Shown in pieces: positions 1 to 40,094 of a stretch of DNA of 40,232 nt. A program made the position numbers and the translations under genes. Source of the DNA: a virus; IMG/VR virus record IMGVR_UViG_3300031566_000143, positions 1 to 40,232 of that record. One strand, given 5' to 3'. Below the pieces are notes generated by a model. The model worked only from the letters and a program-made list of their open reading frames with translations. It did no database searches and was not told the DNA's origin. The stretch's first letter is position 1. The number at the start of each line of letters is the position of its first letter.

Positions 1-517
1 CCGCCCACGAGAGCGGCCCCGTGAAGATCGTCCACTCGGGCATGTTCTCCCGGATGTACGCATACCATTGTTTGGCCTTGTCGTCGTAGGGCTTCTCGCT
101 CCACAGGTCGACGCCGAAGATCGCCTTTTGCGAGTAGAGATACTGGAGCCGCCCGATTACCTTTTCGTCCGGGTCCTTCGACGGCCCGAGGGCGAATATC
201 GCCGGGAACCCCCGCCCCTTCTCTGGGTCGTCGTGGTAGCCGCTGGTCACAAAGCGCCCCCAGGTATACCCCCGCCGCTGCATCCACTCCCACTGCTCGC
301 TCGGCAGCCGCCGGTACTCGTAGACCCCTGCCCCCGCCGGCACCACCAGGTCCGGCTCGGGCTCCGGTTCCGGTTCGGGCGCCGGCGCCGCCTCGTGGAT
401 CTCCAGCGTCACCGGCCCCGCCGAGGTCCGGATCGTCACCGTCTCCGCGGGGACCTCGACGATGGCCCAGCAGAAAAGAAACGCGACCAGGGCCGCCATC
501 ACCATTCGCTTTCTCAT
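1..517 (-). CDS. Secreted hypothetical protein, 3' end beyond the left edge
   Basis: The reading frame is open from an ATG at 517 to the left edge (172 codons, no stop reached). An AGGAGG-like Shine-Dalgarno lies just upstream. The protein begins with a signal peptide: basic MRKRM, a hydrophobic stretch (AALVAFLFCWAIV) and a plausible cleavage site near VPA|ET. A short beta-rich stretch and a Pro-Glu linker (repeated EPEPEP, about residues 48-56) follow, then a Trp/Tyr-rich globular part (SEQWEWMQRRGYTWGRF, later KQWYAYIRENMPEW). I recognise no family. Export to the envelope or outside is likely. Its position at the distal end of the early leftward block would suit a lysogenic-conversion or superinfection protein, but that is only inference. 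Confidence 0.72.
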   Translation of the reverse strand, partial: MRKRMVMAALVAFLFCWAIVEVPAETVTIRTSAGPVTLEIHEAAPAPEPEPEPEPDLVVPAGAGVYEYRRLPSEQWEWMQRRGYTWGRFVTSGYHDDPEKGRGFPAIFALGPSKDPDEKVIGRLQYLYSQKAIFGVDLWSEKPYDDKAKQWYAYIRENMPEWTIFTGPLSWA

Positions 518-593: not shown

Positions 594-1022
594 CTAATGG
601 TCCTCCGACTCACTGGCCGGCTTGTGTTCTTGGCAGCGAGGATTTATCTCCTCGTCCGGGTCGTAGTCGTCCGTGTCGTCATCGTCCTCGTCCCCTGCGG
701 CCACCTTGTACGCGCACGCGCTGCAGAGGTCGGGGTGCACCCACCAGCAAGGCCCACCGTCGTCCGGGAGGCAGGAGTGGTCGTCGTCACAGCCGCAGAC
801 GCGGCAAACCCGCCGTGCCGGTTGAAGCGCTTTCAATTTCGCCTGTTTCTGCTCTTCGGCCTGGGCGTCCGCCTGGGCGAACAGGCGCCGCGCCGCGGCC
901 TTCTTGTCCTCCCACGGCCACACGGTAGCCAGGAGCGTGACGCCCATCCGGAAATTGCTGTAGCTCTCGAATGGATGATTGAACGTCCGAGAGCTGTGTG
1001 CCTCGATTCTGAAAATGTGCAT
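594..1022 (-). CDS. Phage zinc-finger protein with acidic tail
   Basis: This 142-aa protein starts at an ATG preceded by a strong AAGGAGGAGG. The N-terminal half is soluble and helical, with an Ala/Lys/Gln-rich segment. The centre holds a Cys cluster of the form CxxCxC...C...C...CxxC (CRVCGCDDDHSC, then GGPCWWVHPDLCSAC), which should bind one or two zinc ions. The Cys/Trp pattern resembles small phage proteins of unknown function that I recall from many GC-rich phages. The C-terminus is strongly acidic (DEDDDDTDDYDPDEE), perhaps a DNA mimic or a protein-interaction tail. It is the last gene before a hairpin terminator in the early leftward block. A nucleic-acid or protein-binding early function is likely, but no activity can be assigned. 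Confidence 0.8.
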   Translation of the reverse strand: MHIFRIEAHSSRTFNHPFESYSNFRMGVTLLATVWPWEDKKAAARRLFAQADAQAEEQKQAKLKALQPARRVCRVCGCDDDHSCLPDDGGPCWWVHPDLCSACAYKVAAGDEDDDDTDDYDPDEEINPRCQEHKPASESEDH

Positions 1023-1041: not shown

Positions 1042-1872
1042 TCAGCCAATGCCTCCAGAAACGCGCTGTGAACTGCACACGAAGCCCCGGCGGTCCGGGC
1101 TGTCCTCTGTGTGCTCTTGGCCGCCGGCCACTGCCACAGCATCAGCGACAGCGGCCCGATGGACATTTGCAGACAGCGGATCCCCTCGACCGGCTCGACG
1201 AGCTGGGTAAACGGCTGCCACCCCGCCCTCCCCTCTATCGTTGAATAGGTCCGCGCCGAGCACTGCCTCTCTCATCTCGTCCCAGTTCTGATTCCGACTC
1301 AGTGTCGTGCTGTCGACCGAGTCGGCCCCTATTTCCCGCGCCCATCTGATACGGTCGCGCGTGCCCACGCCGCCGATATGCGCCTGCTTGCCTACGTCAT
1401 GCGCGAATTCGACCCACATCTGCGCGGTTGCCAGCTTCCAGGCCATAGTGCCGCCGACGAAAATATGGGTGAACCGCTCAAGATGGTATGGCGTGAGGTC
1501 CTGCGGAAGCATCCCGTCCTGCACGGCAAGCGCCAGCCGCGGCGCTGTCAACAGTTGCCCGTAGGCCCAGCCGACGCTAAAGCCGAGAGACGCGCGGCCG
1601 CCGGCGACGATGTCAGGGGCGACTATGAAGTCGACGCTGAGACCCCATCGGTGCGCCCCCTCAATGGCTTTGAGGAACGCGCCCTCATCGAACGGAAGCC
1701 CCCGTTTCCAGCATCCCCAGGCGCCGTTGTCGAGCGCGCACCGCACGCCCCTCATCTGCCCCCAGCGCTTGCTCGGGCTCCAGCTGCGGGAACTCGAAAG
1801 CATGACGCCACATCCCAACTCGCGCACGTGCTCCAGCCCCTTACCGACCATCGCTCCGATGTAAATCAGCAT
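1042..1872 (-). CDS. TGT/DpdA-like guanine transglycosylase (phage type)
   Basis: Members of the tRNA-guanine transglycosylase superfamily swap guanine for a 7-deazaguanine base. Short phage members related to DpdA act on DNA. In this 276-aa protein I see an LDNGAW motif (about residues 47-52), FIVAPD (82-87), LAVQDG (115-120), HIFVGGTMAWKL (136-147) and GADSVDSTTLSRN (182-194). The last aligns by eye with GxDxxDxxxPTRN of TGT, which places D187 at the catalytic nucleophile. The Cys3-His zinc site of tRNA-type TGT is absent. Start at 1872 is chosen because GGAAGAGAG precedes it; the frame is open up to 1929. The last ~70 residues are low-complexity, and another frame looks more protein-like there (see findings). 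No preQ0 synthesis gene lies in the window. Confidence 0.72.
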   Translation of the reverse strand: MLIYIGAMVGKGLEHVRELGCGVMLSSSRSWSPSKRWGQMRGVRCALDNGAWGCWKRGLPFDEGAFLKAIEGAHRWGLSVDFIVAPDIVAGGRASLGFSVGWAYGQLLTAPRLALAVQDGMLPQDLTPYHLERFTHIFVGGTMAWKLATAQMWVEFAHDVGKQAHIGGVGTRDRIRWAREIGADSVDSTTLSRNQNWDEMREAVLGADLFNDRGEGGVAAVYPARRAGRGDPLSANVHRAAVADAVAVAGGQEHTEDSPDRRGFVCSSQRVSGGIG

Positions 1873-2059
1873 CTCTCTTCCCACGAAACCGTCACCTCTA
1901 CCCTGGGGTTTTCCTTGTCGATGTTCCATGCCCCGTGGCAGCCCGCGACGTATTTGTCCACCCGAGGCACGGCGGGGCGCACTTGGTTGGCACGGCGGGG
2001 CGCACTTGGTTGGCCCTGCGGTCGAGGTCGTCCATCTCGTAACCCTGTCCCATAGTCAT
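1866..2059 (-). pseudogene. Small gene frameshifted by a 23-bp tandem duplication
   Basis: An ATG at 2059 with a good AGGAG upstream opens a 53-codon frame that stops at TAG 1900-1898. Inside it a 23-base unit occurs twice in tandem (1966-1988, 1989-2011). With one unit removed, the frame runs on to encode a 56-aa protein that continues VPRVDKYVAGCHGAWN and ends VEVTVSWEERC. Its TGA (1868-1866) would then overlap the ATG of the downstream transglycosylase gene at 1872, the tight coupling seen through the rest of the operon. The present form is therefore probably the disrupted version of a real small gene. Product function is unknown. Confidence 0.7.
1966..2011. repeat. Perfect 23-bp tandem duplication (two copies)
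   Basis: The unit starts GGCACGGCGGGGCGC and ends ACTTGGTT. It occurs at 1966-1988 and 1989-2011 with no mismatch. Its length is not a multiple of three, so gain or loss of one copy shifts the frame of the small gene it lies in. Confidence 0.95.
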
Positions 2060-2073
2060 AGAGCGCTCCTCTC

Positions 2074-2763
2074 CTACTTAGGCCTCTTATGAACATAGTC
2101 AAAAGCCGGCCCGCCGGGGCTCGCGTCGGCGACCTCGGCCTTCCTGGGGCGGTTCTTCTCGATGATGTCGATGCAGTGGCAGACGGCCTCGGCGAGGGTC
2201 GACCCGCCTTTAGCGTCGCTGGACGCGTCCGAAGAGATGTCCTCTCCTGACCTGACCTGTCCAGGGGCCAGGTCAGGAGAGGAATGACATGACATGGAAG
2301 GACATGGAAGGGATAGGCCGCCGTTGTCTGCCACTGTCTGCCGTTGTCCGCCGCTGTCCAGACTCGCGCCGACGCGCTCCGGGTCGAACTTCCCGCGCAG
2401 GCTCGCAAAGCCCGGCTCCGGCGGACCCTTGCCCCCGGCGTGGCGCTTCTGCGCCCGCTGGATGCGCTTGTGGATGAACTCCCAGCAGTGGTCGTGCCAG
2501 TCGTGGACGACGAGGCGATGGACAGGGTGGCGGTCCAGCCACCGGCACTCGACCATCGCCTCGATCATCCGACCTGGTTCCCCTGCCCAGCCGGCGGCGT
2601 GCTCTATGGCCTCGTCGGGCCAGCGGCCGATGTCCCCCCTGTAGGCGAACGCCGCCGCAAAATGCCAGGTATGCTCCAGGAGGCCGCTGGTCTCCGCCGC
2701 GCCGGTGCCCAGAACGCTCCGCAGGTGGATGTGCTTGGGATGCTCGGGCGTCCCCAGTTTCAC
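2074..2763 (-). CDS. Phage replication-type protein (N-terminal domain like replisome organisers)
   Basis: This 229-aa protein starts at a GTG with AGGAGG upstream. The N-terminal ~110 residues match a pattern I know from phage replication initiator or organiser proteins: a winged-helix-like segment with WPDEAIEHAAGWAG, then ECRWLDRHPVHRLVVHDWHDHC. The rest is a polar, Ser/Gly/Asp-rich linker and a short helical C-terminus (AEAVCHCIDIIEKNRPRK). It lies in the early leftward block downstream of the Cro- and Xis-like genes, where lambdoid phages carry replication genes. The stop TAG lies among the upstream sequences of the next small gene. A regulatory DNA-binding role is the main alternative. 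Confidence 0.68.
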   Translation of the reverse strand: MKLGTPEHPKHIHLRSVLGTGAAETSGLLEHTWHFAAAFAYRGDIGRWPDEAIEHAAGWAGEPGRMIEAMVECRWLDRHPVHRLVVHDWHDHCWEFIHKRIQRAQKRHAGGKGPPEPGFASLRGKFDPERVGASLDSGGQRQTVADNGGLSLPCPSMSCHSSPDLAPGQVRSGEDISSDASSDAKGGSTLAEAVCHCIDIIEKNRPRKAEVADASPGGPAFDYVHKRPK

Positions 2764-7064: not shown

Positions 7065-10000
7065 TCAGCGGCTGCGGGATCCCCGGCCCCGCCGGCCCCT
7101 GCCCGCCGTCTCGGGCTCCTCTTCCAGGGCGCCTTTCGTCCAGATGAGCTCCAGCGGCTTGCCCCTGCGGATTGCCCTCTCGGCCTGCACGAAGTAAGGC
7201 GTGGGGACGCCGGCGATCTTGCCGAAGCCCTCGGCGGCGCGTTCGAGCGCCAGGATGAAGTCCGCGCTCTGTACCATGTCCAGGACATTCCCCCCGCGCT
7301 CGACGGCGCGCCTGGCCGACGACGCGGCCTTCAAGAGGTCGTCGACGGACGCAAAAAGCGGACTGGCCTGGTAGCCCCAGGGCTCCTTGAGGAGCCGGTC
7401 GAAGATCGTCTGCGCGAGCTGTCCGAACACCAGCACGTTGTTGAGCGGTCCGAGAATGAGCGGCCTGAGCTGCCGGCGGGGCCGGTACTTCAACCCGTCG
7501 GCCAGCAGCTGAAACAACGAGGGCAGGACGACCCACACGAGTATCAGGTTGGAGAGCGCCTTGACCCTGGATCCCCGGCCGTACCGCAGCGCCCGGGCGT
7601 AGGTGGCCTCGCTGCGAAAATACTTGTTGAGCTGCGACTGGAACATCGTGAACATCTTGGCCCAGGACCCGCCGCGCTGGAGGGAGCTCAGCGTCTCGAC
7701 GTTCGACGTGGGCTGGGTCCTTTCTGTGACCCTCTCGGCAAAGCGCCACGCCTGGGCCTCGGACTTGCCCGTCTTGAGGGCGTAGCGGTACGCCGCCCAG
7801 GCGCCCTGCATCACCGCGAGCTGGTCGCCCTGGCGCGTCAGCAAAAGGTAGAGGTCCTCGACGCTCCCCTTGCCGCTTGCGACCCTCGCGGCGCGGCGGC
7901 GCCCGCGGCCGGCCAGTGCCGCCCGTATGTCCCTCTCGAAGCCCGCGCGGAACCGCTCGGCAATGAGAGGCGACCCCTCGATAAGGTGCCGGTAGTGGTC
8001 CAACGGCGCCCTCCAGAAGTCGGCAACGCCCTGGAAGAACCGGCCGGCAGGCATCTCCAGCATATACGCCAGGACGCTCGGGACCTGCTTTGCCGCTATG
8101 ACGGGCTTGAACCCCAGCAGGGCCTTGATGGCGTTGCGCCGCAGCCAGTCGAGCACAAAGACGCTGCGGGCCCGCGTGACGCCGTCGCGCGCTATGTCGT
8201 TGAGGAAGTCGTCGACCTTGGCGAGGACGTCCGCGCCGCGGTACTGCCGTATGGCCTCGCGGACGTCCCTGTGCTGGAAGAGGCGCCTCATCTCCCGGAC
8301 CGGCACCGCGAAAGCCCGGTAGTGCTCCATCTGGAGGATATGGTTGACGAGGGTGCCCGTCGCGGACGTGTACATGAGCGGGTGCAGGTTGGGCACGCGG
8401 GTTTTCAGGGAGCGGCTCGTGACGGCCGCGTAGCGGCTGGTCTCCTGGCCCATGAGCACGTTTTCCGGGATCCCCGCCTCGACGTCCCTGGAGATCGGCG
8501 AGTAATGCCTGTTGTGGGGCAGGTTGACGCCGTTCATGTCGCGCCACACCGCGTTAACGCCGTGGTAGTATCGCTGGTAGAACGCGAGCTGCCACCGGCC
8601 CCAGGCCTTCTCCTCGTCGCTCAGGCCCCCCTCGATGGCCTTCAGCATTTTCGGAGTGAGGGCGTTGCCCCTCGGGTGCATGAGGGTCTCCGTCAGGGTC
8701 GGGTCGTGCATCTCCTCCCACTTTTTCAGCATCTGCTCGGCGGTCAGCTTCAGGCGGACGAGCTCGCCCCGGGCGTTGACGAACTCGCCCAGGTCGAGTT
8801 CGACCATCTCCATCGTGTTGAGTATGCGGTTGAGCTCGCCGGTGTCCTGTGTGCCGAACACGACCTCGAGGCCGACCCGGACCTCCTTAAAGACGTCCAT
8901 CGTCCCCCGGGCCTGCTCCGTGCGCGCATCGTGGATCACGTTCGTCAGCTCGAAGAGGGCGCCCTCGTACGGTTTATGGCCGCGCTCGCGCTGGGAGAGC
9001 TTCTCTATAAGCTCGTCCCAGCCGTACTGCGCGTTGAGGAACTTGTCGAGCCAGGTCCGCTGCGCCTCGCGCTGGGCGCGCGGGATCGTGCCGGCGCCGG
9101 GCTTGAGGCCTTTGCCCTCCGTAATGACGCCAACGGCGACCTCGGCGTTGCGCTCGGTGTTCTCGCGCGCCAGCTGGCGCTTGGCCTCGGCCAGGCCCAG
9201 CCCCGACCTCTTGATATGCCGGATCTCCTCCAGGGCCCAGGCCGCCTCCTCCGCGGTCATCTGGTTAGTCCCCCACAGCTTCATCCGCTCGATCTTGTCC
9301 ATCATGTCGTCGTAGGACGCCGGCGTGCCCCCCTGGGGCGACTCGTAAGCCTCTATGGCGGCGTCGATGGAGGCGCGGACCTGGTCGCGGTCGTCGTTGC
9401 GGTGCGCGCGGATGTCCTCCAGCTTCTCCTCGACGTCCGCGGTCCGGCGCCCCTGGAGGTATCCCCTCTCCCCGCTGCGGGGCTTGCCCCTGGCGAGCTC
9501 CCGCTGTATCAGCCCGCGCAGGTCCCGGGCCTGCTCCTGCTCGGCCATCTTCTGCCCCAGGGTCATTACCTTTTCCAGGCCCTTCTTGGTCGTGACCTTG
9601 TCCAGGTGGGGCAGCAGCCGGCCGCGGGTTTTAGTTCCGACGTGCTTTTTCAGGAACTCGGCCAGGGCGGCGCGCAGCTCCTTCTGCCTGACCTTCTCGT
9701 CCATGAACTGCTTGCGGACCTTCGCCGCCGCGTCCTGGGCGGCTTCCTTGCGGATGAACTCCTCGGCCTGCTTGAAGTCGCTCCTCACGTGCGCGAGCGC
9801 GCGGCGGGCGTCGCGTACCTTCTTCTGGAGCTGCTCGCGCGCCACCGACTCGCCGGCCTGGCCGGCCTTGCGTACTGCGGCGAGGACCTTCGCGCGCAGC
9901 GACTCGGTAATAAACGTGCGTTTCGTCCTGGTCTTCGTGGAGGGCCGCAGCAGGGAGCTCTCTATGTCCGCCTCAGTGGCCCCCTGCTCCATTGCGACGT

Positions 10001-13000
10001 CCACGAGCGTAGAGTTGATCTCCTCCAGCGTGTAACCCTCTTTCAGCCCGGAGTATTTTGCCCAGGCGAACTCCAGGCCCGCGTCCCCCATCTCGAGGGC
10101 CTGGTCGAGCGCGTAGGCGTTCACGTTCCCGTATTTGCGCTTGGCGGTGACGACCTGGTCGAGGAGCTCCAGGAACGTCTCGATTGACTCCCCGCCCCGA
10201 CCCATGGCGTCAAGCGTCTCGTCCCACCCCTTCTCGGTGCCGACCGCGCGGTCGCTGCGGATGATATGCCGCCAGAGGTACTGCCGCCCGCCCTTCTCGC
10301 CGGGTCGGCCGACAAACTGCATTACCTCGCCCTTCCACTCCGGTATGCCGATCCGGTAGCGGGTGTGCGCGTTGATCCCCTCGATCCCCCCGACGCCCTC
10401 GCCCGCTCCCTCGGCGCCGACGAGCATCTCCCTGTAAGACCAATTCTTCAAAATCTCCTGCTCGGCCTCCCGGACCATCGACGCGCGGGTCTGGACCGAG
10501 ACCTCCCGCGGCGGCTCCAAGAGGCGCGCCAGGTCCTCGACGATCTGTTCGATGGGGGCGCGCCGCGCGGCGGTCTCCGCGGCCTCCTGGTCGGTCTCCG
10601 CGGGCGCCGCCGGCGTCTTGGGCGCGGGCTCGAGGGGCAGCTCGCCGCCGGCCTCGCGGACCTGGAAGCCGGGCAAGCTCTCTCCGCCGGCCAGACCGAG
10701 CCACTTTTCTATCGCCGCGGCCACGTTCGGCGCGTGTTGTTCACCGCGGGCTGCCTGGTCTCGCGCCCATTCAAGCGCCTCTTGCGCCGCCGCCGCGACG
10801 GCCTCGTCTCGGGTCTCATAGCCTTCGTCCCTGCTCGAGGGGCCCATGAGCGCGCCGCTGTGTGACCCGTAATGCTGCTCCAGTTCTACGCCCCAATGCC
10901 AGCGCCGGTCCTTGTACCCCTTGACGACGCGCAGAGTAACCTCGGTCCTGTAGGACTTGGGCAGCCGGATATGTATCTTCTCGCTCCGCGTGAAGGCCCC
11001 GTACTCGTTCGGCGCCTCTCCTTCCGGCGCCGGCGGCTCTTGCTCCTCGCGCTCCCACCGCGCCAGCTTTTCCATGAACTCGCGGCGGTCTTGTGCCACG
11101 GCCTCGGACTCGGCCGCTTGCTCCGCGGCCTCGGCCGTCGGCGGCTCCGCCAAGAGTCCGCGCTTCGGCGGCGCGTCTCTCAGGGCGAAATACGCCTCCC
11201 CCCGTGCGTCCCACATGACCGCGAAATAGTCCCTCATGTCCTGGGCGACCAGCCTTGTCAGAAACGCCCTCGACTCGGCCTTCCTCGGCTGGAGCTTGCG
11301 GGCGAGGACCTCTATACGTTGCCAGGGTCTCTTCGCCAGGGCGGCCGCGGCAGGCTGGAGATACCGGCGTGCGAGGTTTTTCGCCGTCGCGCTATTGCCC
11401 CCCTGCTCCATTTCCTTACGCACGAACTCGTCGAACATCTCCCTCTCGGCAATCTGCGAGAGTCTCTCCTGGGCCCAGGGCTGGGCGCGATACTCGAGAA
11501 GTACCTCTCGCGGCACGCTTTCCCCGTCGCGCAGCGCTTTCTGCAGGACGTCGCTGTGTTCTACCTTGCCCCCCTTCGCGTCGACGCCGTAGTAGAGCCA
11601 CTTGCGGACGGGGTGGGTGCCTCTATCAGACCGCCAGGGGTGCCGGACCCTGCCGCTCTCCCACTCGGCACGCGTCATCTCCCAGGGTTCTTTCCCCTCG
11701 ACCTCCGCTCGCGCCGCCTGCGCGGCGGCGACCTGGGGCGGTAACGGCTCTTCTTTCTCGACCTGCGCCTCGGCCCTTTTGCGCCCCGCCTCCCTCTCCC
11801 TGGCGCCCAACCACGCGGCGACTTCTCCCTCGGCTTCGGGCGCCGCGGACCGAGGCGCCTCGGCAAACCCCAGGTCGGCCGGCCTCAGCTTCTGCCACTT
11901 GTCGGCCAGGGCCCTCGCGGCGTTATACAGGAGCGTCGTTGCGCGGCCCACGCCGGCGCGGCGGTCGTTGTAGAAGTTCTCCGCCGCGACGTCGAGGTCG
12001 TCGGAGATCTGCCCCTTCATCGACGCGAGCTGCCTGACCATTCTTGCCGTCTCGTCGTCCCCCCGTTCCCGCAGCTCCCTCTCCGCCTGGCGCAGGAGCG
12101 CCTTGCGCTCCTTCCCGAGATGCCTGGGTGCCTCCTCCCCGCCGAAAAGCGTCTCCCTCTTCTCCTCGACGATGGGCCCGGGCTCGGTCTCCTCGAGGCC
12201 GCCGGCAAAGAGTGACGGCGCGGGCTCACCGGGCCTGGCCGGTCGGCGCCGGCGCTCGGCTATCGGCCTTCCAAAGAGGTCCACCGGCCCCGCCGCCTCG
12301 GCCGGCCTTTCCTTCTCCGGCTCCTGGCCGAAAAGCCCCGCCTGGCGGACCTGGAAAGAGGGGAACCCCACGCGCAGCGCCGAGTCCTTCATGGCCGGCG
12401 TAAGTGGGAAGCCCCAAGCGGGCGCACCCGACGAGACCTTTGTGAGGAGGACCTTGCCGCCGAAGCGCTTGACGAGCTTGCGCGCGGTGTTGACGAGGAC
12501 CTTGTCGTAAAACTCCGCCAGGCCGCCGGCCCCCACCTCTATGCCTTCTCGCTCTATGACGATGGTGTGCGTCGGGTCCGACTCTATGGCCTGGAGTACC
12601 TCCGGCCCGAGCTGTCCGCCCAGGCCCGCGACGAGGGCCTGCCGGGATGGAAAGCTCCAGCTTTGGACCAACGCATTCGGCGCCCCGGTCCGGTAGCGCT
12701 CGCCCGCGGATTGGTACAGTTCGACGCGATAGACTCCCTCCCTGGTGCGCGAGGCCTCGATCATGTTCCCGCGGTAGGTCTGGCCCCACCGCTGGTTCTG
12801 CTGCGCCCCCGTCGTCCAGGCCACCATGTCGTAATCGTTCTCGGCCGCCCACCGTATCATCCGCTTCAGGCACAGTTCGGGCCAGGTGTGGCGGAAGGGG
12901 GCGTCTGGCACGCCGCCCACTTGGCGCGCCGTCATCTGGCGCGCGGCCTTTTCTTGCGCTTCGGCGTCAGTGTCGGCGTACACGGTCAGCGTGCCGTTCG

Positions 13001-16000
13001 TCGGGTGCCTGACGATGTAGGCATATCGCCCCGCTCGGGCCAGCGCGTGTGGCGTCCAAAGGCCCGGGCTCCGCTCGACCACGGTCCACTCCTCCGGACG
13101 CGACTTGACGATATACCCGTCCTCCCTGCCCTGCTGGTGGAGGTCGCTCTGGATCTCCTCGATAAAGAGGACCTGCCGGCCCGCCTCGTCGGTGGTCCTG
13201 TCGAAACGCACGTGCGCGACGACGCCCTGTTCTGTCCAGTGCGGCTGCTCGTAGTCCATCGCCTCGTCTACGCGAAGGAGCAGCTCCGTGTAGTGGGGGC
13301 CCGCGCCCATGAGCGTGTATTCAGGGTATTGTACTCTCCTGTCCTCGGGGGCCTCCGCGGCCGTTTCCTCCCAGAACTGCACCATCCAATGAGCGGCCTG
13401 GTCCCAGGCGTGGCTTACGTTGTAGGCCGTGATTCGCCAGGCCGCGATCTGGTCGAGCTCGCCATACGGGCGCAGCTCGTACCTGCCGCGGCCTTTCTCT
13501 ACCACTTCAACGGGTATGTCGATCGAGTCCGTCCGCCAGACGCCGGGGTGTTCCTCGTACCAGGCGAAGTCCTTCTCCTTCGGCGGTTTCTCGTACTTCT
13601 CGAGCTCGTCGACGATGATCTCGTTCTGGCGCATGGCCGTAAGGAGCTCGTCCTTGCTGACCATCCCGTCCCTGGTGAGCTTGCCAAGCGAGCTCCCGAG
13701 CTCCGTCCAGAATATCTCCTCCTCCTTGACGCCGGCGTTCTGGACCATCCTCATGACCTCGTCGGGGCGCGCCCGCTCGCCCATCTTTTCCTCGAGGACG
13801 CGCAGGAGTTTCGAGTAGAACACCGGGGCGAAGTCGGCCTCCTCGGCCCTGACCTGGTAGGACGGCCACAGGCGCCCCTGCGTGCGCTGCTCGAAGGGAG
13901 GGGTCGCCGGGCCTGGGGGCTGTATTTCGCGCGAGGGAGGCGCTTCAGCGCCGAAGGCTTGACGCCAGAGGTCTTCGAGCCATATTGGGTGGGCCGTCGC
14001 CCGGAAGGTCCGTATACGCGCCAGGAGCGCCCGCAGGGACGCCCTCGCGCGCTCGAAGAGATGCCGGATCGGGCCGACGCGCTCGTGGAGCTTTTTCGAG
14101 AAGATAAAGACGGCCCCCTCGTCGCTGAAGTGCTCGCTTACCCGCCTGGGGTCCTGTGTGGCGGCGTGCCACTGTTCGACGCGGCGCTGCTCGGCCGCGG
14201 GCAGGCGCCTCCAGAACCGTTCCAGAAATTCATGTACGGCCGTTTCCGCGTCGGCCCCCTGCAACAGGCGCACGGTCGTCTGAAGCACGCCGGCCTGGAG
14301 CTTGGCCTCAGTTACGCCGTGGACCTCGTACTTGACGCCCGGGCGCGGGACGATGCCCTCGGCCGCGAGGATCTCCGGCGTCGCCTCCATCACCGAGGAG
14401 AGGATCTCGAGCCGGCTGTTCTCGTCGAAGTCGGGGGCGACCTTCAAGAGGTAGCGCAACAGGCGCGCCTCGCCCGCGGAGATCCTCCCGCGCTGGCGCG
14501 CCTCGCCGACCTGGTAGGCCGCGCCGCCCCCGCGCACCTGGCGCCCCGCTGCGGGGGCACGATAAACGTAGAACTCGCCCTCGCGGACATAGCCTTCTGG
14601 CAGGGCTAACGGGTGTCCGCCTCCCAATGGCGACGCCTGCGCCGCGTTCACATTGTCAAACAGCTCGGCATTTATTCGTTCGCGTCGTTCCATGCCCTCT
14701 TTGAGATTCGCTCGGGCGCCTGTCAGAACAAGGACATCTTCCCCTTGAGCCCTGGTGAATAGAACATTGCCTTCGGCGTCGTAGCGAAAAGGAGCGCGTC
14801 CCTCCTGAACGGCTTTCGTACCGTGTTCTCCACGGGCAACTCTGCGATCTAAGTCCCAATGCGCGTGTTCTTCTGGCGTCATCTCCCACGGCTGCTTCTC
14901 GGCCTTCGCTTCCGCACGGCCAGGGCGCCGGCTTATGTGGTCGGGCGGGCCCAATTCCGCTGCCCCAGGAGCCGGCGCCTCCGCCGCCGCGGGCTGCGGC
15001 GCAACACCCGGCGGCGGCGGTTGCGGCTTCCGCTTCCTGACGAGGCGCGCTTCCTTCTCGTCGATGAAGAGCTTGCCCATGCCGGCCTGTACGATCCACC
15101 CGCGCTTGCCCTCCCCCAGGTCGACGAACTTCTCGGCCCAGCCGCGCCCTCGTTCGCCCTGTATGAAATCCCCGACCTCGATTACCTGTCCTGGTGTTTG
15201 AAGTGCTCCACCTGGGCCAGGCGCTTCACGGCCTTCGCCTTCGACGGGTAGGGGCCCCCCAGGTTCTTGCCCTTGTGGCTCCTCACGTGCCACCCGTCCT
15301 TTTCCTTCCGTACCATACTGACCTCCTCTCGGGACTATGCGCCCCGCTCGTACCTCGACCTCCGCCCCGGGCAGGCGCACCGTTTCCGCAGGCACGATTT
15401 CCGGGACGGGGTAGCTGACTGCCTTGGGCGAGACGACGCCGGCCGGCGCCGCGCCCATTTGGAGCTGACTGACGCCTCGCGCCGCCCTGCCCTCGAGCGC
15501 GCGGTCTATGCGAGAGGCGCGCCTCTCGGCCTGAGCGCGGGCCTTCTGGACCTGGCGCGCGCCTCCGACGGCGGTTGTGACGTCCACGCCCTGCCCGAAG
15601 GCCATGAGCACCGGGATGGAAAGCCCGGCGTCCACGAGCTCGCTGACGCCGGCGCGCATCTGGCCTTCGAAGTCGATGTCCAGGGGCCTGCCGGACGCGC
15701 GGGAGGCGTAGCTGGCCGCCGCCTGGGTGCCGAGTTCGACGGCCTTCTGCGCGACCTCTTCGGACCATTCTTTCCCCAGGACGACCGCGGCCTTCCCCGC
15801 GCTCTTGACTATCTGCCCCATCACCGACTTCGCGTAAGCCTGCCTGAACGCCTTCAGCGCGCCAGCGGCGAGGCCCGTCGGCATCATCTGTCTGACCTGG
15901 AGGTCCTCGATTACCGCCTCGGCCACAGCGGCCCCCAGGGCGAATATGTTCGCCTGGACGGGTTCCATCCCCGCCGCCAGGAGCTGCCTCCTCCTGTCCG

Positions 16001-16688
16001 GCCAAATCTGCGTCACCCAGAACGCCGTCCCGCCCATCGGGGCCCCCGCCGCGGCGACGCCGCCGTACAACATCGCCGGGGCCATCCTCGCGGCGCCGAA
16101 GACGCCCCTGCCGACGAGCTGGCCGACGGCGCCCGTGTCCGGCTCGGGCTTTACCGGGCGCAGCTCGTCTTTCAGTGCCTGGTAGACCTTCTGCGACTCG
16201 ATTTTCCCGGGCGTCCACCCCTGGAGGGCTCCCTTGCCGCCCGCGATCTGCCCCGTCGCGAGTTGGATGAACTCGATTTCATTGGTGCCCAGGTCGACAT
16301 AGCCGCGCTCGACCTGGTCGGCGATCTTGCCCAGGACGCTGCGGGCCTCAGGCTCGGCCAGCACGCGCGCGGTCTGCTGTGCGTGCTCGAGCTCGGCGTC
16401 TCGTTGGATGGCGGGGGCGTTCATGACACCGTAGGCGAGCTGCGGCTGCGGGCCTCCCTGCCACGGCGCCGTGCCGGAAAGCCCCTCGGTGAGGTCGAGG
16501 GCGCCCGGCGGCCCCACCGGCAGGGCCGCGGCGACCGCCGGCTGGCCGTATCCGAACTCCAGGGGCGCCAGGCGATTGACCTCCGGGGTGTCCAGGGACG
16601 CCAGGCGGTTGCGCTCGGGCTTGTCGAGTGACGCCAGGCGGTTTTCCTCCGGCTCGTCCTCGACGAGGCTTTGAAGGCGGTTGGTCAC
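7065..16688 (-). CDS. Giant polyvalent virion protein (3207 aa)
   Basis: Such multi-domain proteins are packaged and ejected with phage DNA. Four NRLxxL repeats open the protein (residues 3-43), then hydrophobic helices (~190-340). A module PWEMTxxE occurs near residues 596 and 1668. A zincin-like segment near 815 reads VHEFLERF in place of HExxH. Residues ~940-1450 match a domain common in phage polyvalent proteins (GPHYTELLL, VLFIEEIQSDLHQQ, KRMIRWAAENDYD, AWTTG). A Lys/Glu-rich helical region follows (~2100-2700). The C-terminus resembles the LPD38-type domain (PLDHYRHLIEGSPL, MFQSQLNKYF) with a hydrophobic stretch near 3050. The GTG start overlaps the previous stop by four bases. DNA protection or transfer during ejection is the likely role; no enzyme activity is certain. 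Confidence 0.85.
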   Translation of the reverse strand: MTNRLQSLVEDEPEENRLASLDKPERNRLASLDTPEVNRLAPLEFGYGQPAVAAALPVGPPGALDLTEGLSGTAPWQGGPQPQLAYGVMNAPAIQRDAELEHAQQTARVLAEPEARSVLGKIADQVERGYVDLGTNEIEFIQLATGQIAGGKGALQGWTPGKIESQKVYQALKDELRPVKPEPDTGAVGQLVGRGVFGAARMAPAMLYGGVAAAGAPMGGTAFWVTQIWPDRRRQLLAAGMEPVQANIFALGAAVAEAVIEDLQVRQMMPTGLAAGALKAFRQAYAKSVMGQIVKSAGKAAVVLGKEWSEEVAQKAVELGTQAAASYASRASGRPLDIDFEGQMRAGVSELVDAGLSIPVLMAFGQGVDVTTAVGGARQVQKARAQAERRASRIDRALEGRAARGVSQLQMGAAPAGVVSPKAVSYPVPEIVPAETVRLPGAEVEVRAGRIVPRGGQYGTEGKGRVAREEPQGQEPGGPLPVEGEGREAPGPGGALQTPGQVIEVGDFIQGERGRGWAEKFVDLGEGKRGWIVQAGMGKLFIDEKEARLVRKRKPQPPPPGVAPQPAAAEAPAPGAAELGPPDHISRRPGRAEAKAEKQPWEMTPEEHAHWDLDRRVARGEHGTKAVQEGRAPFRYDAEGNVLFTRAQGEDVLVLTGARANLKEGMERRERINAELFDNVNAAQASPLGGGHPLALPEGYVREGEFYVYRAPAAGRQVRGGGAAYQVGEARQRGRISAGEARLLRYLLKVAPDFDENSRLEILSSVMEATPEILAAEGIVPRPGVKYEVHGVTEAKLQAGVLQTTVRLLQGADAETAVHEFLERFWRRLPAAEQRRVEQWHAATQDPRRVSEHFSDEGAVFIFSKKLHERVGPIRHLFERARASLRALLARIRTFRATAHPIWLEDLWRQAFGAEAPPSREIQPPGPATPPFEQRTQGRLWPSYQVRAEEADFAPVFYSKLLRVLEEKMGERARPDEVMRMVQNAGVKEEEIFWTELGSSLGKLTRDGMVSKDELLTAMRQNEIIVDELEKYEKPPKEKDFAWYEEHPGVWRTDSIDIPVEVVEKGRGRYELRPYGELDQIAAWRITAYNVSHAWDQAAHWMVQFWEETAAEAPEDRRVQYPEYTLMGAGPHYTELLLRVDEAMDYEQPHWTEQGVVAHVRFDRTTDEAGRQVLFIEEIQSDLHQQGREDGYIVKSRPEEWTVVERSPGLWTPHALARAGRYAYIVRHPTNGTLTVYADTDAEAQEKAARQMTARQVGGVPDAPFRHTWPELCLKRMIRWAAENDYDMVAWTTGAQQNQRWGQTYRGNMIEASRTREGVYRVELYQSAGERYRTGAPNALVQSWSFPSRQALVAGLGGQLGPEVLQAIESDPTHTIVIEREGIEVGAGGLAEFYDKVLVNTARKLVKRFGGKVLLTKVSSGAPAWGFPLTPAMKDSALRVGFPSFQVRQAGLFGQEPEKERPAEAAGPVDLFGRPIAERRRRPARPGEPAPSLFAGGLEETEPGPIVEEKRETLFGGEEAPRHLGKERKALLRQAERELRERGDDETARMVRQLASMKGQISDDLDVAAENFYNDRRAGVGRATTLLYNAARALADKWQKLRPADLGFAEAPRSAAPEAEGEVAAWLGAREREAGRKRAEAQVEKEEPLPPQVAAAQAARAEVEGKEPWEMTRAEWESGRVRHPWRSDRGTHPVRKWLYYGVDAKGGKVEHSDVLQKALRDGESVPREVLLEYRAQPWAQERLSQIAEREMFDEFVRKEMEQGGNSATAKNLARRYLQPAAAALAKRPWQRIEVLARKLQPRKAESRAFLTRLVAQDMRDYFAVMWDARGEAYFALRDAPPKRGLLAEPPTAEAAEQAAESEAVAQDRREFMEKLARWEREEQEPPAPEGEAPNEYGAFTRSEKIHIRLPKSYRTEVTLRVVKGYKDRRWHWGVELEQHYGSHSGALMGPSSRDEGYETRDEAVAAAAQEALEWARDQAARGEQHAPNVAAAIEKWLGLAGGESLPGFQVREAGGELPLEPAPKTPAAPAETDQEAAETAARRAPIEQIVEDLARLLEPPREVSVQTRASMVREAEQEILKNWSYREMLVGAEGAGEGVGGIEGINAHTRYRIGIPEWKGEVMQFVGRPGEKGGRQYLWRHIIRSDRAVGTEKGWDETLDAMGRGGESIETFLELLDQVVTAKRKYGNVNAYALDQALEMGDAGLEFAWAKYSGLKEGYTLEEINSTLVDVAMEQGATEADIESSLLRPSTKTRTKRTFITESLRAKVLAAVRKAGQAGESVAREQLQKKVRDARRALAHVRSDFKQAEEFIRKEAAQDAAAKVRKQFMDEKVRQKELRAALAEFLKKHVGTKTRGRLLPHLDKVTTKKGLEKVMTLGQKMAEQEQARDLRGLIQRELARGKPRSGERGYLQGRRTADVEEKLEDIRAHRNDDRDQVRASIDAAIEAYESPQGGTPASYDDMMDKIERMKLWGTNQMTAEEAAWALEEIRHIKRSGLGLAEAKRQLARENTERNAEVAVGVITEGKGLKPGAGTIPRAQREAQRTWLDKFLNAQYGWDELIEKLSQRERGHKPYEGALFELTNVIHDARTEQARGTMDVFKEVRVGLEVVFGTQDTGELNRILNTMEMVELDLGEFVNARGELVRLKLTAEQMLKKWEEMHDPTLTETLMHPRGNALTPKMLKAIEGGLSDEEKAWGRWQLAFYQRYYHGVNAVWRDMNGVNLPHNRHYSPISRDVEAGIPENVLMGQETSRYAAVTSRSLKTRVPNLHPLMYTSATGTLVNHILQMEHYRAFAVPVREMRRLFQHRDVREAIRQYRGADVLAKVDDFLNDIARDGVTRARSVFVLDWLRRNAIKALLGFKPVIAAKQVPSVLAYMLEMPAGRFFQGVADFWRAPLDHYRHLIEGSPLIAERFRAGFERDIRAALAGRGRRRAARVASGKGSVEDLYLLLTRQGDQLAVMQGAWAAYRYALKTGKSEAQAWRFAERVTERTQPTSNVETLSSLQRGGSWAKMFTMFQSQLNKYFRSEATYARALRYGRGSRVKALSNLILVWVVLPSLFQLLADGLKYRPRRQLRPLILGPLNNVLVFGQLAQTIFDRLLKEPWGYQASPLFASVDDLLKAASSARRAVERGGNVLDMVQSADFILALERAAEGFGKIAGVPTPYFVQAERAIRRGKPLELIWTKGALEEEPETAGRGRRGRGSRSR

Positions 16689-34773: not shown

Positions 34774-35043
34774 TCAGTTCCGCCCCTTGCCGATACACAT
34801 GAGCGCCCCGGCCTGCGCTCCCATCAGCTTCCCCATGCCATTCAAGAGGACCACCAGCCTGTCGCTCGGCTTGCAGACGCTGTCCGGGATCGTGACCCCG
34901 ACGTCCCGCGCGACTACGTCCGTCCACCGGCGCACCTCGCGCAGCTCCTCCGCTATAGTCCTCACCGCGTAGACCGAGTACTCCTCGAGCTCCACTACCC
35001 GCGCCTTCAGGCGCGCCACGTCCTCGCCCTTCGTCTCAGGCAT
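34774..35043 (-). CDS. MPETK-family small protein, paralogue 1 (89 aa)
   Basis: ATG 35043 has GGAGGAAAGAGGGAG upstream. The protein is nearly the same as the N-terminal 85 residues of the gene at 35985-36602: shared MPETK, LKAR, ELEEYS/ELEDYS, YAVRT, VGVTIP, VCKPSDRL and VLLNGMG. It has a heptad-like helix (DVARLKARVVELEEYSVYAVRTIAEELREV) and a C-terminal helix. It follows the winged-helix paralogue 1 gene. Not recognised; the shared core suggests a protein-protein adaptor retained in two copies. Confidence 0.72.
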   Translation of the reverse strand: MPETKGEDVARLKARVVELEEYSVYAVRTIAEELREVRRWTDVVARDVGVTIPDSVCKPSDRLVVLLNGMGKLMGAQAGALMCIGKGRN

Positions 35044-35067
35044 CTCCCTCTTTCCTCCTCCAGCAGC

Positions 35068-35988
35068 CTATACCAGAATCGCCAGCGACTTCCTCACCCA
35101 CTCGCGCGAGGCCACAAACTCCATATTCACGCCCACGCCTACCATCGTCACGCGGATCGCCTGCACCCTGGACCCGCCCAGCGCCCGGTCTGTGGCCTGC
35201 AGTTGCCCCAGCTGCGCCTCGTGCAGCCCCATGCGTTGCTGCAGGCCCGTCAGGCCGAGGGCTTCCTGTTGAAACCCGCTCAGCTCCTCGCCTGGCGCGA
35301 CCGCGTCCGCCCCAGGCGCGACCGCGTCCGCCCCGGCCTCGCCGCTTGTCTGCGCCGGCGCCCTCTCCTCGCCGACCCGGAAGTAGTAACCGGCCCTCTG
35401 GTTGCTGACGAGCGTCCCGGGCATTTTGTCGGCGTACTTCCTGATGGCGTACCTCACCGACTGGACGTCCGCGCCCAGCATCTCGGCTATCTCGCGCGTC
35501 CTCAGCGCGTTCTCCAGGCCTACGCAGTGCTCGAGGACGCCCACCAGCGCCTCGAACGACAGCAGTTCGTGTTTGGCCTTCCTTGACATCGTCTGCTCCT
35601 CTCTAAGGCATTCCCGTCTGACTGGCGCCGGCCGCGCCGGCGTGATTACCTGCTCTCCGACGACCTGTTTCTTCATCTGGAGGCGCGCCCCGAGCTCCAG
35701 GACCTTCGCCTCCATTGCCGTTGCCACCTTCTCCGCGCGCCCGGGACCGAACCAGTTCTTGACGGTCTGGCCCTTCCTCCACCAGCACAGTTTCCCGAAA
35801 CACCGCCGCGGCCTCTCCGGGTGGTCCCCCGCCTCGTGCGCCGGCGCCGGCGCCCAGCCGAGAAGGCCGATGCCGACTGCCCCGTCGTCCCTCCAGTAGA
35901 AGCCGAGGATCTGGCTCGTGCGAAACTCCCTCGGGTCCCTGCCGACCTCTCTCCAGAACTCCTGGGCGCTTGTCGCGTTCCGTTTCAT
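35068..35988 (-). CDS. Winged-helix regulator-like protein, paralogue 1
   Basis: This 306-aa protein overlaps the previous stop by four bases. The N-terminal ~95 residues form a Trp-rich domain (AQEFWREVGRDP, GLLGWAPAPA, CFGKLCWWRK, NWFGPG) shared with the protein at 38405-39232. Residues ~130-205 form a winged helix (ENALRTREIAEMLGADVQSVRYAIRKYADKMP, then GYYFRVGEE), also shared. A linker with a repeated heptapeptide GADAVAP and a C-terminal domain with VTMV follow. Probably a DNA-binding regulator; the Trp-rich domain is not a family I recognise. Confidence 0.7.
   Translation of the reverse strand: MKRNATSAQEFWREVGRDPREFRTSQILGFYWRDDGAVGIGLLGWAPAPAHEAGDHPERPRRCFGKLCWWRKGQTVKNWFGPGRAEKVATAMEAKVLELGARLQMKKQVVGEQVITPARPAPVRRECLREEQTMSRKAKHELLSFEALVGVLEHCVGLENALRTREIAEMLGADVQSVRYAIRKYADKMPGTLVSNQRAGYYFRVGEERAPAQTSGEAGADAVAPGADAVAPGEELSGFQQEALGLTGLQQRMGLHEAQLGQLQATDRALGGSRVQAIRVTMVGVGVNMEFVASREWVRKSLAILV
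35294..35335. repeat. In-frame 21-bp tandem repeat
   Basis: Two units (35294-35314 and 35315-35335) encode GADAVAP twice in the linker of the winged-helix paralogue 1. The unit length keeps the reading frame, in contrast to the 23-bp duplication at 1966-2011. Confidence 0.85.
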
Positions 35989-36602
35989 ACCTCACCCACG
36001 AGCGCTTCCCGCACCGCGCACGCCAGTGCATAAGCCGCCGCGACGGGCACGCCCTGTGTGAGGAACCGCGCTTTACTCCGGCGCGCCAGCTGAAAATAGC
36101 CTACCTTGTCCATGTCGAAGTCCTCGGGCAGGTCGAAGGCATCCAGAAGCTGCGGCCAACTCAGATAGCGCCCCGCCCCCTTCGTCGAGTGCGCTTGCTC
36201 GGAGGCGTTCCCCGTGATCGTCCGGTAGGGCTTCTGAGCGGTATCGTCGCCGCTGCACGTAGTCCCGTCCCCGAGTATCGTAAAGTATTCGCCCTCCGCC
36301 CCGTCCCCCCGTCCTATCCTTTCGCGCCACTCGCAGCCCCATGCCCTGCCGATGGAGTTCAGCGTCCTGCCCATGGCCCCCATCTGCCGGCCCATGCCGT
36401 TCAGGAGCACGAGCAGCCTGTCGCTGGGCTTGCACACGGCCTCGGGGATCGTCACCCCTACCTCGCGGGCCGCCGCGTCCACCCGCCGGCGCACGAGGCG
36501 CAGCTCGCGCGCGACGGTCCTCACCGCGTACAGCGAGTAGTCCTCGAGCTCCGCAATCCGCGCCTTCAGCCCCGCCATGTCCTCGTCCTTCGTCTCAGGC
36601 AT
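35985..36602 (-). CDS. MPETK-family protein, paralogue 2 with C-terminal extension (205 aa)
   Basis: ATG 36602 overlaps the ParB-like stop by eight bases. Residues 1-85 are paralogous to the 89-aa protein at 34774-35043. Residues ~100-205 are extra: a Gly/Thr-rich segment (TILGDGTTCSGDDTAQ), a helical part LSWPQLLDAFDLPEDF and an Ala-rich end (VAAAYALACAVREAL). Its stop overlaps the next gene by four bases. Not recognised. The shorter copy may have lost this extension, or this copy may have gained it. Confidence 0.72.
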   Translation of the reverse strand: MPETKDEDMAGLKARIAELEDYSLYAVRTVARELRLVRRRVDAAAREVGVTIPEAVCKPSDRLLVLLNGMGRQMGAMGRTLNSIGRAWGCEWRERIGRGDGAEGEYFTILGDGTTCSGDDTAQKPYRTITGNASEQAHSTKGAGRYLSWPQLLDAFDLPEDFDMDKVGYFQLARRSKARFLTQGVPVAAAYALACAVREALVGEV

Positions 36603-38355: not shown

Positions 38356-38404
38356 GCCCCTACCTCCTCCCTGTCCTCGCGTCACACGGCCACAGACAGT
38401 TTCT

Positions 38405-39232
38405 TCAGATCAACTCGCACGCGGTCTCCTGAACGCGGCATCGAGGCCCTTCCAGCCGGACCACGACGTCGTTCCGCACCATCGTGACGCAAACCAGCTC
38501 CTTGTCCTCCTCCGTCGCCGCGGGCACGGGGTTGGTCCGAGCCTCCCGCAGGCTCTCCGCCATTGCGGCCGCCTGCGGTGGAAGCGCCGTGCCTGCCGGC
38601 GCCTCCTCGTCGTCGCCCCCCTCGAAGTAGTACCCCAGGGGTCCGGCCGTCCGCAGCTTGCCCGGCCAGCGCACGCGGTGCTCGCGTATCAGCCGCCCGA
38701 TGCGCCCCGGCTTCAAGCCCGTCCTCTTGGATATCTCCGTGGACGTCAGCGCGTTGTCGCGCCCCACGGCCTTCTCCAGCTCCAGGAGAATGCGCTCCGC
38801 CTGGGCTGCCTCGTCCTTCTGTCTCTCCATCTGCTCGCTCCTTTCGGGCCTGCGGCCCTCTGACCAACGCCTGTCGCTCGTTTGGCGCCGCGACTCGCGG
38901 CGCTCGCGCCTCTCGCCAACCTCCTCCCGTTCGGTCACCCGCGCGTCCATCTCGACTGCCCTGCAACACATCCGCTCGGCCAGGACGTCCGGAGCCCCCG
39001 GCCCGAACCACTCCCAGTGGTTCTCACGCTTACGCCGCCAGCACATCTTCGCGAAACACCGGGGCTCGGGCGCCACGCCGCCCTTCGGCGCCGGCGCCGC
39101 CTCCCATCCCAGCTGCCCGAATCCGATTGCGTCCCGCTCGGCCCACTGAAAATGGAGCACGGCCTTCGTGCGGTACGCCATCGGCTCGCGGTTGACCTTG
39201 ACCCAAAACTCCTGCGCGGTACTCACCGTCAT
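38405..39232 (-). CDS. Winged-helix regulator-like protein, paralogue 2
   Basis: This 275-aa protein starts at ATG 39232, overlapping the methyltransferase stop by four bases. The N-terminal ~95 residues share AQEFW, FxWxxxxAIGFGQLGW, CFAKMCWRRK and WFGPG with the protein at 35068-35988. An Arg/Glu-rich linker follows, then a winged helix (RDNALTSTEISKRTGLKPGRIGRLIREHRVRWP, GYYFEGGDD). The C-terminus again holds VTMV. The two copies differ in sequence through most of their length, so the duplication is old. A DNA-binding regulator is likely. Confidence 0.7.
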   Translation of the reverse strand: MTVSTAQEFWVKVNREPMAYRTKAVLHFQWAERDAIGFGQLGWEAAPAPKGGVAPEPRCFAKMCWRRKRENHWEWFGPGAPDVLAERMCCRAVEMDARVTEREEVGERRERRESRRQTSDRRWSEGRRPERSEQMERQKDEAAQAERILLELEKAVGRDNALTSTEISKRTGLKPGRIGRLIREHRVRWPGKLRTAGPLGYYFEGGDDEEAPAGTALPPQAAAMAESLREARTNPVPAATEEDKELVCVTMVRNDVVVRLEGPRCRVQETACELI

Positions 39233-39942
39233 GGCCAAAGCCCCTTCTGCCCGCCCAGCGCCTCCGACAGCGTCAGCCCCTCGCGCGCCGCCTTCAGCCG
39301 ACGCCGGGACAGCTCCACGTACTGCGGCACGACGTCGCAGCCGAGGAAATGCCGACCGTGCTTCTGCGCCGCCACCATCGTCGTGCCGCTGCCCATGAAC
39401 GGGTCTATGACGATGTCGCCGGCGTAATGCTTAACGAGCCAGTCGCAGTGATCCAAATGGCGCGGACATGGGTGCTGCGACCTCGCCGCCCTTGCCTCCT
39501 CGCTGGCCTGCGCGTAAATCCCTCCAGGCAGAAGACCGTGGCTCCCCACACGCTGGGGCAACTCGCCGAATATGTACGCCACATCTCCGCCAAGCAAACG
39601 TCCCTTGCGACTGGCCGGCACGTACTGAAGCCAGCACGTCCGCACAAACGGCAGCTCCCGCGGGATCGCCTCCAGGAACCGGGGATCACTCTGGCAGCCG
39701 AGTATCACGATCACCAGGTCCGCGATCCGGGGGAACTCGCGGGCGACTCGCGCGAAGAGGCCCCAGGGGTCGTCGCTGCCGGCGAGCTCCGGGATGCAGT
39801 TCGGCCAGACGGGGTCCGTGATGATGCTGGTGTGGCGCTCGAACCGCGGCAGGGACTGAAGCCACTCGCCGGCGTCCGCGCAGTACACCCGGTCCATGCC
39901 GCCTGCCTTGTAGAGCTCGCCTGTCACGCCAGCCACAGCCAT
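39229..39942 (-). CDS. Beta-class DNA methyltransferase (m6A/m4C)
   Basis: This ~237-aa enzyme transfers a methyl group from S-adenosylmethionine to an amino group of A or C in DNA. Motif IV reads TDPVWPN (residues ~42-48), a variant of DPPY/DPPW, and the SAM-binding motif I reads DPFMGSGTTMVAAQKHGRHFLGCD near the C-terminus, giving the IV-then-I order of the beta class. GCQSDPRF and GGDVAYIFGELP are typical of a phage branch I recall. ATG 39942 is used; GTG 39945 is possible. It overlaps both neighbours. No restriction gene is nearby, so protection against host restriction is the likely role. Confidence 0.88.
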   Translation of the reverse strand: MAVAGVTGELYKAGGMDRVYCADAGEWLQSLPRFERHTSIITDPVWPNCIPELAGSDDPWGLFARVAREFPRIADLVIVILGCQSDPRFLEAIPRELPFVRTCWLQYVPASRKGRLLGGDVAYIFGELPQRVGSHGLLPGGIYAQASEEARAARSQHPCPRHLDHCDWLVKHYAGDIVIDPFMGSGTTMVAAQKHGRHFLGCDVVPQYVELSRRRLKAAREGLTLSEALGGQKGLWP

Positions 39943-40094
39943 CACTTCGCTTTCGCAAAGTCAACGCGCAGCCCCACGCAGGGGATGGGGAATAGATAGA
40001 GCCGCCTCTTTTCGCGGTTCCAGTAGGCGCCAATCCAGATGTCGAACCACGCGAGCACAATCCGCACTCTTCGATGTATCTGAAGCTCAGTCAT
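39942..40094 (-). CDS. 50-aa hypothetical protein
   Basis: ATG 40094 overlaps the upstream stop (ATGA), and the stop shares a base with the methyltransferase ATG. The product is beta-rich and aromatic (MTELQIHRRVRIVLAWFDIWIGAYWNREKRRLYLFPIPCVGL). Similar short phage peptides of the IWIGAYWNRxxRRLYLxPIPCxG kind are common in GC-rich phages and have no known function. Translational coupling supports it as real. Confidence 0.75.
   Translation of the reverse strand: MTELQIHRRVRIVLAWFDIWIGAYWNREKRRLYLFPIPCVGLRVDFAKAK

What the first reader, a model, noticed from the sequence alone, without database searches (positions are those of the whole stretch)
1042..1872. Candidate DpdA-like deazaguanine DNA-modification gene
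The protein keeps the TGT nucleophile motif (GADSVDSTTLSRN) but has no tRNA-type zinc site and is short, like phage DpdA relatives that place 7-deazaguanines in DNA. No preQ0 biosynthesis genes are in the window, so the phage would rely on host preQ0 or on genes outside. Together with the methyltransferase at 39229-39942 it suggests two layers of genome protection.
Basis: partly seen in the sequence, partly recalled or inferred. Interest (0 to 1): 0.65.

Follow-up and report, generated by a model that had tools for sequence, protein, structure and literature searches.

The report
Small phage deazaguanine transglycosylase, DpdA-like
This phage gene very probably encodes a small enzyme that swaps guanine for a modified guanine (a 7-deazaguanine), most likely in the phage's own DNA; it belongs to a widespread but barely characterised branch of a known anti-restriction enzyme family.

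Summary
ORF 1042-1872(-) encodes a TGT-superfamily barrel with the catalytic and base-pocket motifs in order and no zinc site. It belongs to phrog_15826 ("unknown function"; no Pfam or NCBIfam match). Profile comparison links it to phage DpdA1 (E 1.6e-8, far above shuffled controls) and more weakly to tRNA-TGT; it carries the DpdA-type histidine (His196 of phage 9g) in 80 of 80 aligned members. The AlphaFold model (pLDDT 91) matches TGT best. Of 102 family groups, 44 have a preQ0 synthesis or transport gene nearby, often adjacent. The DpdA reading is well supported at family level; a DNA substrate is inferred, not shown. Corrections: the last ~66 residues as called are probably out of frame. 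A near-identical sister contig shows the window is a circular genome lacking ~0.54 kb, so the phage has none of the preQ0 genes searched for. The sister has another gene at this exact site: swappable cargo. The methyltransferase is real and ~1.9 kb away; "two layers" is untested. The window's own subclade shows no preQ0 neighbours. Best filed as a minimal DpdA variant distinct from DpdA1 and DpdA2; DpdA3 could not be checked.

The parts
1042..1872 (-). DpdA-like TGT-superfamily ORF as called (276 aa)
   Evidence: phrog_15826 E 1.6e-27
1237..1872 (-). conserved catalytic barrel, residues 1-212
   Evidence: relatives align over this part; AlphaFold pLDDT 91.2, pTM 0.89; PDB best match TGT
1723..1731 (-). 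D48-N49-G50, equivalent of DpdA1 DSGA / TGT DSGG (acid-base Asp)
   Evidence: profile alignment; D in 79/80
1612..1617 (-). P86-D87, equivalent of DpdA1 LD.I(G) / TGT FDE (base-recognition Asp)
   Evidence: D87 80/80
1513..1521 (-). Q118-D119-G120, equivalent of TGT QGG
   Evidence: Q118 80/80
1435..1455 (-). G140-G141...K146, equivalent of TGT GGL.VGE / DpdA1 GGL
   Evidence: G141 and K146 80/80
1378..1380 (-). H165, aligned with the DpdA1 histidine His196 of phage 9g (Tyr in TGT)
1294..1332 (-). GADSVDSTTLSRN, D187 = nucleophile Asp equivalent (residues 181-193)
1042..1240 (-). C-terminal ~66 codons of the called ORF; coding signal is in the +1 frame here
   Evidence: GC3 shift; no counterpart in relatives
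594..1022 (-). downstream neighbour, 142 aa, Cys-rich C-terminal half by eye, unknown function
   Evidence: no Pfam/PHROG match
2074..2763 (-). upstream neighbour, replication initiation-like
   Evidence: phrog_9474 E 1.7e-14
39229..39945 (-). orphan N6/N4-type DNA methyltransferase, ~1.9 kb from the DpdA-like gene on the closed circle
   Evidence: PF01555 E 7.5e-13; circle

Best explanation
The gene encodes a minimal, zinc-less transglycosylase of the TGT/DpdA superfamily. By homology, Asp187 would attack C1' of a guanosine and release guanine, and the pocket (Asp48, Asp87, Gln118, Gly141) would bind a 7-deazaguanine such as preQ0 and place it on the sugar. The most likely substrate is phage DNA, with protection from restriction as the benefit. 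The phage carries none of the preQ0 genes searched for, so precursor would come from the host or medium. The gene is swappable accessory cargo in the early region. Shown here: homology, motif set, predicted fold, the family-level link to preQ0 genes, and the site swap in a sister phage. Inferred: activity, DNA substrate, identity of the base, restriction evasion.
For: Profile-profile match to DpdA1: score 61.6, E 1.6e-8 (60 column-shuffled controls max 17.5; reversed 14.8); to TGT: 37.1, E 1.4e-4 (shuffled max 21.7). The family HMM finds 7 of 9 DpdA1 proteins and no TGT; subclade members L027 and L018 hit the DpdA1 family phrog_887 directly, E 6e-6 and 1e-3. The TGT catalytic/base-pocket positions plus DpdA His196 are conserved. 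Model pLDDT 91; TGT fills the top 39 PDB Foldseek rows (best E 2.3e-7), and DpdA/queuine transferases are among the best viral matches. PreQ0 genes or a YhhQ-like transporter lie in the flank of 44 of 102 groups; QueC lies within 400 bp on the same strand in 21 groups, whereas a tblastn with a phage QueC found only 85 of 50,697 phage records. Eight bacterial genomes that carry the gene also have a separate normal TGT. Zinc site absent. Phage DpdA inserts preQ0 derivatives into DNA and is needed for the modification (PMC6884629).
Against: No biochemistry. The 12 other rows in the window's own loosely supported subclade (92/84) have no preQ0 gene in their fetched flanks. At two conserved positions the window departs from the family (R168 to G, N170 to G), although TGT also has G-V-G there. 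The called C-terminus is out of frame. Geometry alone does not single out TGT: pyruvate kinase barrels reach the same VIA-align Z of about 15. A phage with a DpdA but no precursor supply (Orion) had unmodified DNA (PMC6884629).
Confidence: 0.72

Rival explanations
1. It is a phage-borne transglycosylase that modifies tRNA (or another RNA) rather than DNA.
For: The fold and motifs are those of tRNA-guanine transglycosylase; no DNA assay exists.
Against: No zinc/tRNA-binding subdomain; closer to DpdA1 than to TGT and carries the DpdA histidine where TGT has Tyr; hosts of the family already have a normal TGT; the family often sits next to DNA methyltransferase genes.
Confidence: 0.12
2. It is a broken or inactive remnant in this phage: the frame disruption near 1240 or the R168/N170 changes abolish function, and no precursor is supplied.
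For: GC3 frame switch at ~1240; no preQ0 genes in an almost complete genome.
Against: The disruption lies after the conserved domain, which ends near residue 212 in relatives; all catalytic positions are intact; strong coding signal up to there.
Confidence: 0.1
3. It is an unrelated TIM-barrel enzyme (for example an epimerase, lyase or phosphodiesterase) that only resembles TGT.
For: Weak sequence-profile hits to GP-PDE and N-acetylneuraminate lyase at E 0.05-1.5 and none to TGT; pyruvate kinase barrels tie on Z.
Against: Profile match to DpdA1 and TGT well above shuffled and reversed controls with all motifs in register; direct hits of subclade members to the DpdA1 family; tight preQ0 gene linkage.
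Confidence: 0.04

Closest known systems
Phage DpdA (DpdA1; phage 9g, CAjan, Rosebush type; phrog_887/phrog_7068)
   Same: Same motif set in order (DSGA, LD.IG, H.GE, GGL, HGFG, VDSS), histidine His196, no zinc site, preQ0 genes as neighbours, found in phages.
   Different: Different PHROG family; barrel of only ~205 aa; QDG instead of H.G, WK motif, DNGAW instead of DSGAF; separate 100/100 branch in the tree; often with a single preQ0 gene or a transporter rather than the full set.
Bacterial tRNA-guanine transglycosylase (TGT, PF01702)
   Same: TIM barrel, catalytic Asp pair, QGG and GGL pocket motifs in register.
   Different: No zinc site or tRNA-binding extension; His instead of Tyr before the G.G motif; no Pfam TGT match.
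DpdA2 (Vibrio phage nt-1, YP_008125322)
   Same: Superfamily and presumed function; weak structural match.
   Different: No profile similarity (hhalign prob 0.07); 464 aa; DpdA2 lacks His196 (PMC6884629), this family keeps it.
Arthrobacter phage Sonali gp81 / Aoka gp40, annotated 'DpdA-like tRNA-guanine transglycosylase'
   Same: Members of the same family as the window protein; phrog_15826 checked for Sonali gp81.
   Different: About 28-30% identical to the window protein; Sonali also has a separate DpdA1 (gp87) with QueC/D/E and FolE.

Membership tests
Phage DpdA (DpdA1) | TGT-type TIM-barrel fold | tested here: met
   AlphaFold pLDDT 91.2; Foldseek PDB top rows all TGT, E 2.3e-7; caution: other barrels tie on VIA-align Z
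Phage DpdA (DpdA1) | catalytic Asp pair and base-pocket residues of the TGT superfamily | tested here: met
   profile alignment in register; conservation 79-80 of 80
Phage DpdA (DpdA1) | conserved histidine equivalent to His196 of 9g DpdA | tested here: met
   H165 aligned with 9g H196, 80 of 80 members
Phage DpdA (DpdA1) | direct membership of the DpdA1 sequence family (phrog_887/7068) | tested here: not met
   window protein hits only phrog_15826; 9g and Sonali gp87 hit 887/7068; tree separates them 100/100
Phage DpdA (DpdA1) | association with preQ0 synthesis or transport genes | tested here: inconclusive
   met for the family (44 of 102 groups), not met in this genome or in its own subclade
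Phage DpdA (DpdA1) | inserts a 7-deazaguanine into DNA | not testable with these tools
   needs LC-MS or enzyme assay
tRNA-guanine transglycosylase (PF01702) | zinc-binding C.C..C...H site | tested here: not met
   0 of 167 family members, 8 of 8 TGTs
tRNA-guanine transglycosylase (PF01702) | match to the Pfam TGT model | tested here: not met
   no Pfam family at E<=1; note that 9g DpdA itself also has none at E<=0.01
DpdA2 | sequence similarity to nt-1 DpdA2 | tested here: not met
   hhalign probability 0.07 against the single nt-1 sequence; different PHROG, phrog_10773
DpdA3 / DpdA4 (named in a 2023 paper, own knowledge) | sequence membership | not tested
   paper not held, no DpdA3 sequence available; HVTV-1 gp69, a guess at DpdA4, does not match (prob 0.45)

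The most novel reading that the evidence does not exclude
phrog_15826 is an undescribed DpdA subfamily: a ~205-residue single-domain DNA-guanine transglycosylase, carried by phages, plasmids and archaeal elements, that works with only one preQ0 gene, an importer, or a PAPS-reductase-like partner, and may install a base not yet reported.
Probability: 0.3. Interest if true: 0.62.

Novelty: new variant of a known kind. Interest (0 to 1): 0.43.

Why it matters
It turns an 'unknown function' phage family (at least 499 encoding stretches in IMG/VR and 110 in GTDB genomes) into a testable DNA-modification enzyme family. It would be among the smallest DpdA enzymes, and its swap against another gene in a near-identical phage offers a natural comparison for a restriction-evasion test.

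Tried and rejected
The protein alone or the family profile against PDB sequences found no TGT, so the linkage had to go through DpdA1 profiles and the predicted fold. VIA-align Z does not separate TGT from other barrels. A search with the single protein in IMG/VR found nothing; the alignment was needed. Terminase similarity gave no usable host (best 28%). Exact DNA patterns from the gene and a search with the upstream gene found no second copy of this phage that spans the target site. DpdA3 could not be tested because the 2023 paper is not held. No C-terminal repair was attempted; the frame question is reported only.

Full report
What is there. ORF 1042-1872 on the minus strand encodes 276 aa. 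It has no match in Pfam or NCBIfam up to E 1, none in PADLOC, and one in PHROGs: phrog_15826, unknown function, E 1.6e-27. In annotated records the relatives are phage proteins (Erythrobacter R6L gp10; Arthrobacter Sonali gp81 and Aoka gp40, both labelled 'DpdA-like'; ReqiPine5 gp03; Synechococcus phages) and many Pseudomonas and Burkholderiaceae plasmids. With an alignment as query, at least 499 encoding stretches were found in IMG/VR and 110 in GTDB genomes.

Frame. GC at the third codon position is 0.72-0.88 from 1872 down to about 1240, then the signal moves to the +1 frame. Relatives end near residue 212. The last ~66 residues of the called ORF are therefore probably not the real C-terminus. 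The catalytic domain lies wholly before this point.

Family membership. The profile of 80 members aligned to nine DpdA1 proteins gives score 61.6, E 1.6e-8; against 60 column-shuffled versions the maximum was 17.5. Against eight bacterial TGTs it gives 37.1, E 1.4e-4, with shuffled maximum 21.7. In these alignments D48-N49-G50 falls on DSGA/DSGG, D87 on the LD/FDE Asp, Q118 on QGG (TGT) or H.G (DpdA1), G140-G141 on GG, H165 on His196 of 9g (Tyr in TGT), and D187 on VDSSS/FDC. D87, Q118, G141, K146, H165 and D187 are invariant in 80 of 80 rows. His196 is the residue by which DpdA and DpdA2 were contrasted (PMC6884629). Naming these positions as acid-base, base-pocket and nucleophile residues follows established TGT chemistry (own knowledge). 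The family HMM finds seven of nine DpdA1 proteins but no TGT, and DpdA2 of phage nt-1 does not match. Two members of the window's subclade hit the DpdA1 family phrog_887 directly.

Structure. The AlphaFold model of residues 1-212 has mean pLDDT 91.2, pTM 0.89. TGT fills the top 39 rows of the PDB Foldseek search, and DpdA or queuine transferases of phages are among the viral matches. VIA-align gives TGT Z 15.5 (rmsd 3.5 over 206 residues), but pyruvate kinase barrels reach 15.2, so the fold alone would not decide.

Genomic context of the family. Loci were grouped at 75% identity (102 groups). Neighbour clusters checked with Pfam are QueC (PF06508), QueD/PTPS (PF01242), Vut_1/YhhQ-like transporters (PF02592), PAPS reductase-like proteins (PF01507) and DNA methyltransferases. 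Using models built from these, 44 of 102 groups have a preQ0 gene or transporter in the flank; QueC is within 400 bp on the same strand in 21 groups. A tblastn with one phage QueC finds only 85 of 50,697 phage records, which serves as a rough base rate. PAPS-reductase-like genes are in 18 groups; their role is unknown. Eight bacterial genomes that carry the gene all have a normal TGT elsewhere.

The window's own case. In the tree the window falls in a loosely supported group of 13 rows (92/84) with archaeal and viral members, none of which has a preQ0 gene in the fetched flank. No such gene was found in the window. A 16.7 kb sister contig (L190/L195) matches window 1045 to 1 at 98.1% and 40232 to 25276 at 99.96%, with 538 bp between, all inside one gene. 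The window is thus a circular or circularly permuted genome of about 40.8 kb, nearly complete, so the precursor must come from outside the phage. On this circle the methyltransferase at 39229-39945 is about 1.9 kb from the DpdA-like gene.

Swap site. In the sister contig the match stops within a few bases of the end of the DpdA-like gene; upstream lies the end of another gene whose best, sub-threshold Pfam match is DUF5131 (E 0.047). Only 174 bases of it are on the contig, so an assembly artefact cannot be fully excluded, but its stop codon and the following ribosome site are in good order. The DpdA-like gene therefore looks like exchangeable cargo.

Mechanism and limits. The best explanation is base exchange of guanine for a 7-deazaguanine in DNA, as shown for phage DpdA (PMC6884629). 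Activity, DNA substrate, base identity and restriction evasion are inferred. Phage Orion shows that a DpdA gene without precursor supply can leave DNA unmodified (PMC6884629). The methyltransferase is a real orphan enzyme by sequence, but 'two layers of protection' is an untested idea.

Novelty. Some relatives already carry the label 'DpdA-like', so the idea is not new. New here are the tests that link phrog_15826 to DpdA1 and separate it from DpdA1 and DpdA2, the size of the family and its preQ0 linkage, and the swap site. A 2023 paper (own knowledge, not held) names further subfamilies DpdA3 and DpdA4; membership in DpdA3 could not be checked.

Noticed in passing
window 1-517 and 40091-40232; L195 1-1757: The window's two ends are pieces of one gene; a 99.96% identical sister contig bridges them with 538 bp, so the record is a nearly complete circular genome although no end repeats are present.
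   Followed up: yes
L195 1-174 versus window 1045: A near-identical phage carries a different gene (weak DUF5131-like match) exactly where the window has the DpdA-like gene.
   Followed up: partly
L005, L007, L002, L085, L090-L130 flanks: PAPS-reductase-like genes sit next to the DpdA-like family in 18 groups, including plasmids and chromosomes of Paraburkholderia, Caballeronia and Pseudomonas; the partner role is unknown.
   Followed up: partly
Pseudomonas plasmids, e.g. L007, L008: The family is present on 146 Pseudomonas plasmid records, as 'hypothetical protein' in the rows listed, suggesting plasmid DNA modification or protection.
   Followed up: no
window 36595-38385: ParB-domain protein (PF02195 E 1.3e-12) near the methyltransferase; ParB-like genes also neighbour DpdA1 in Sonali, Typha, Saguaro, Mufasa8 and phi3ST.
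   Followed up: no
window 7065-16688: One ORF of 3207 aa on the minus strand, very large for a 40 kb phage; not examined.
   Followed up: no
window 1966-2011: Perfect tandem duplication of 23 nt (GGCACGGCGGGGCGCACTTGGTT, two copies) upstream of the DpdA-like gene.
   Followed up: no
window 34785-36619: Two stretches (around 34785-35061 and 36344-36619) are about 77% identical to each other, an internal gene duplication.
   Followed up: no
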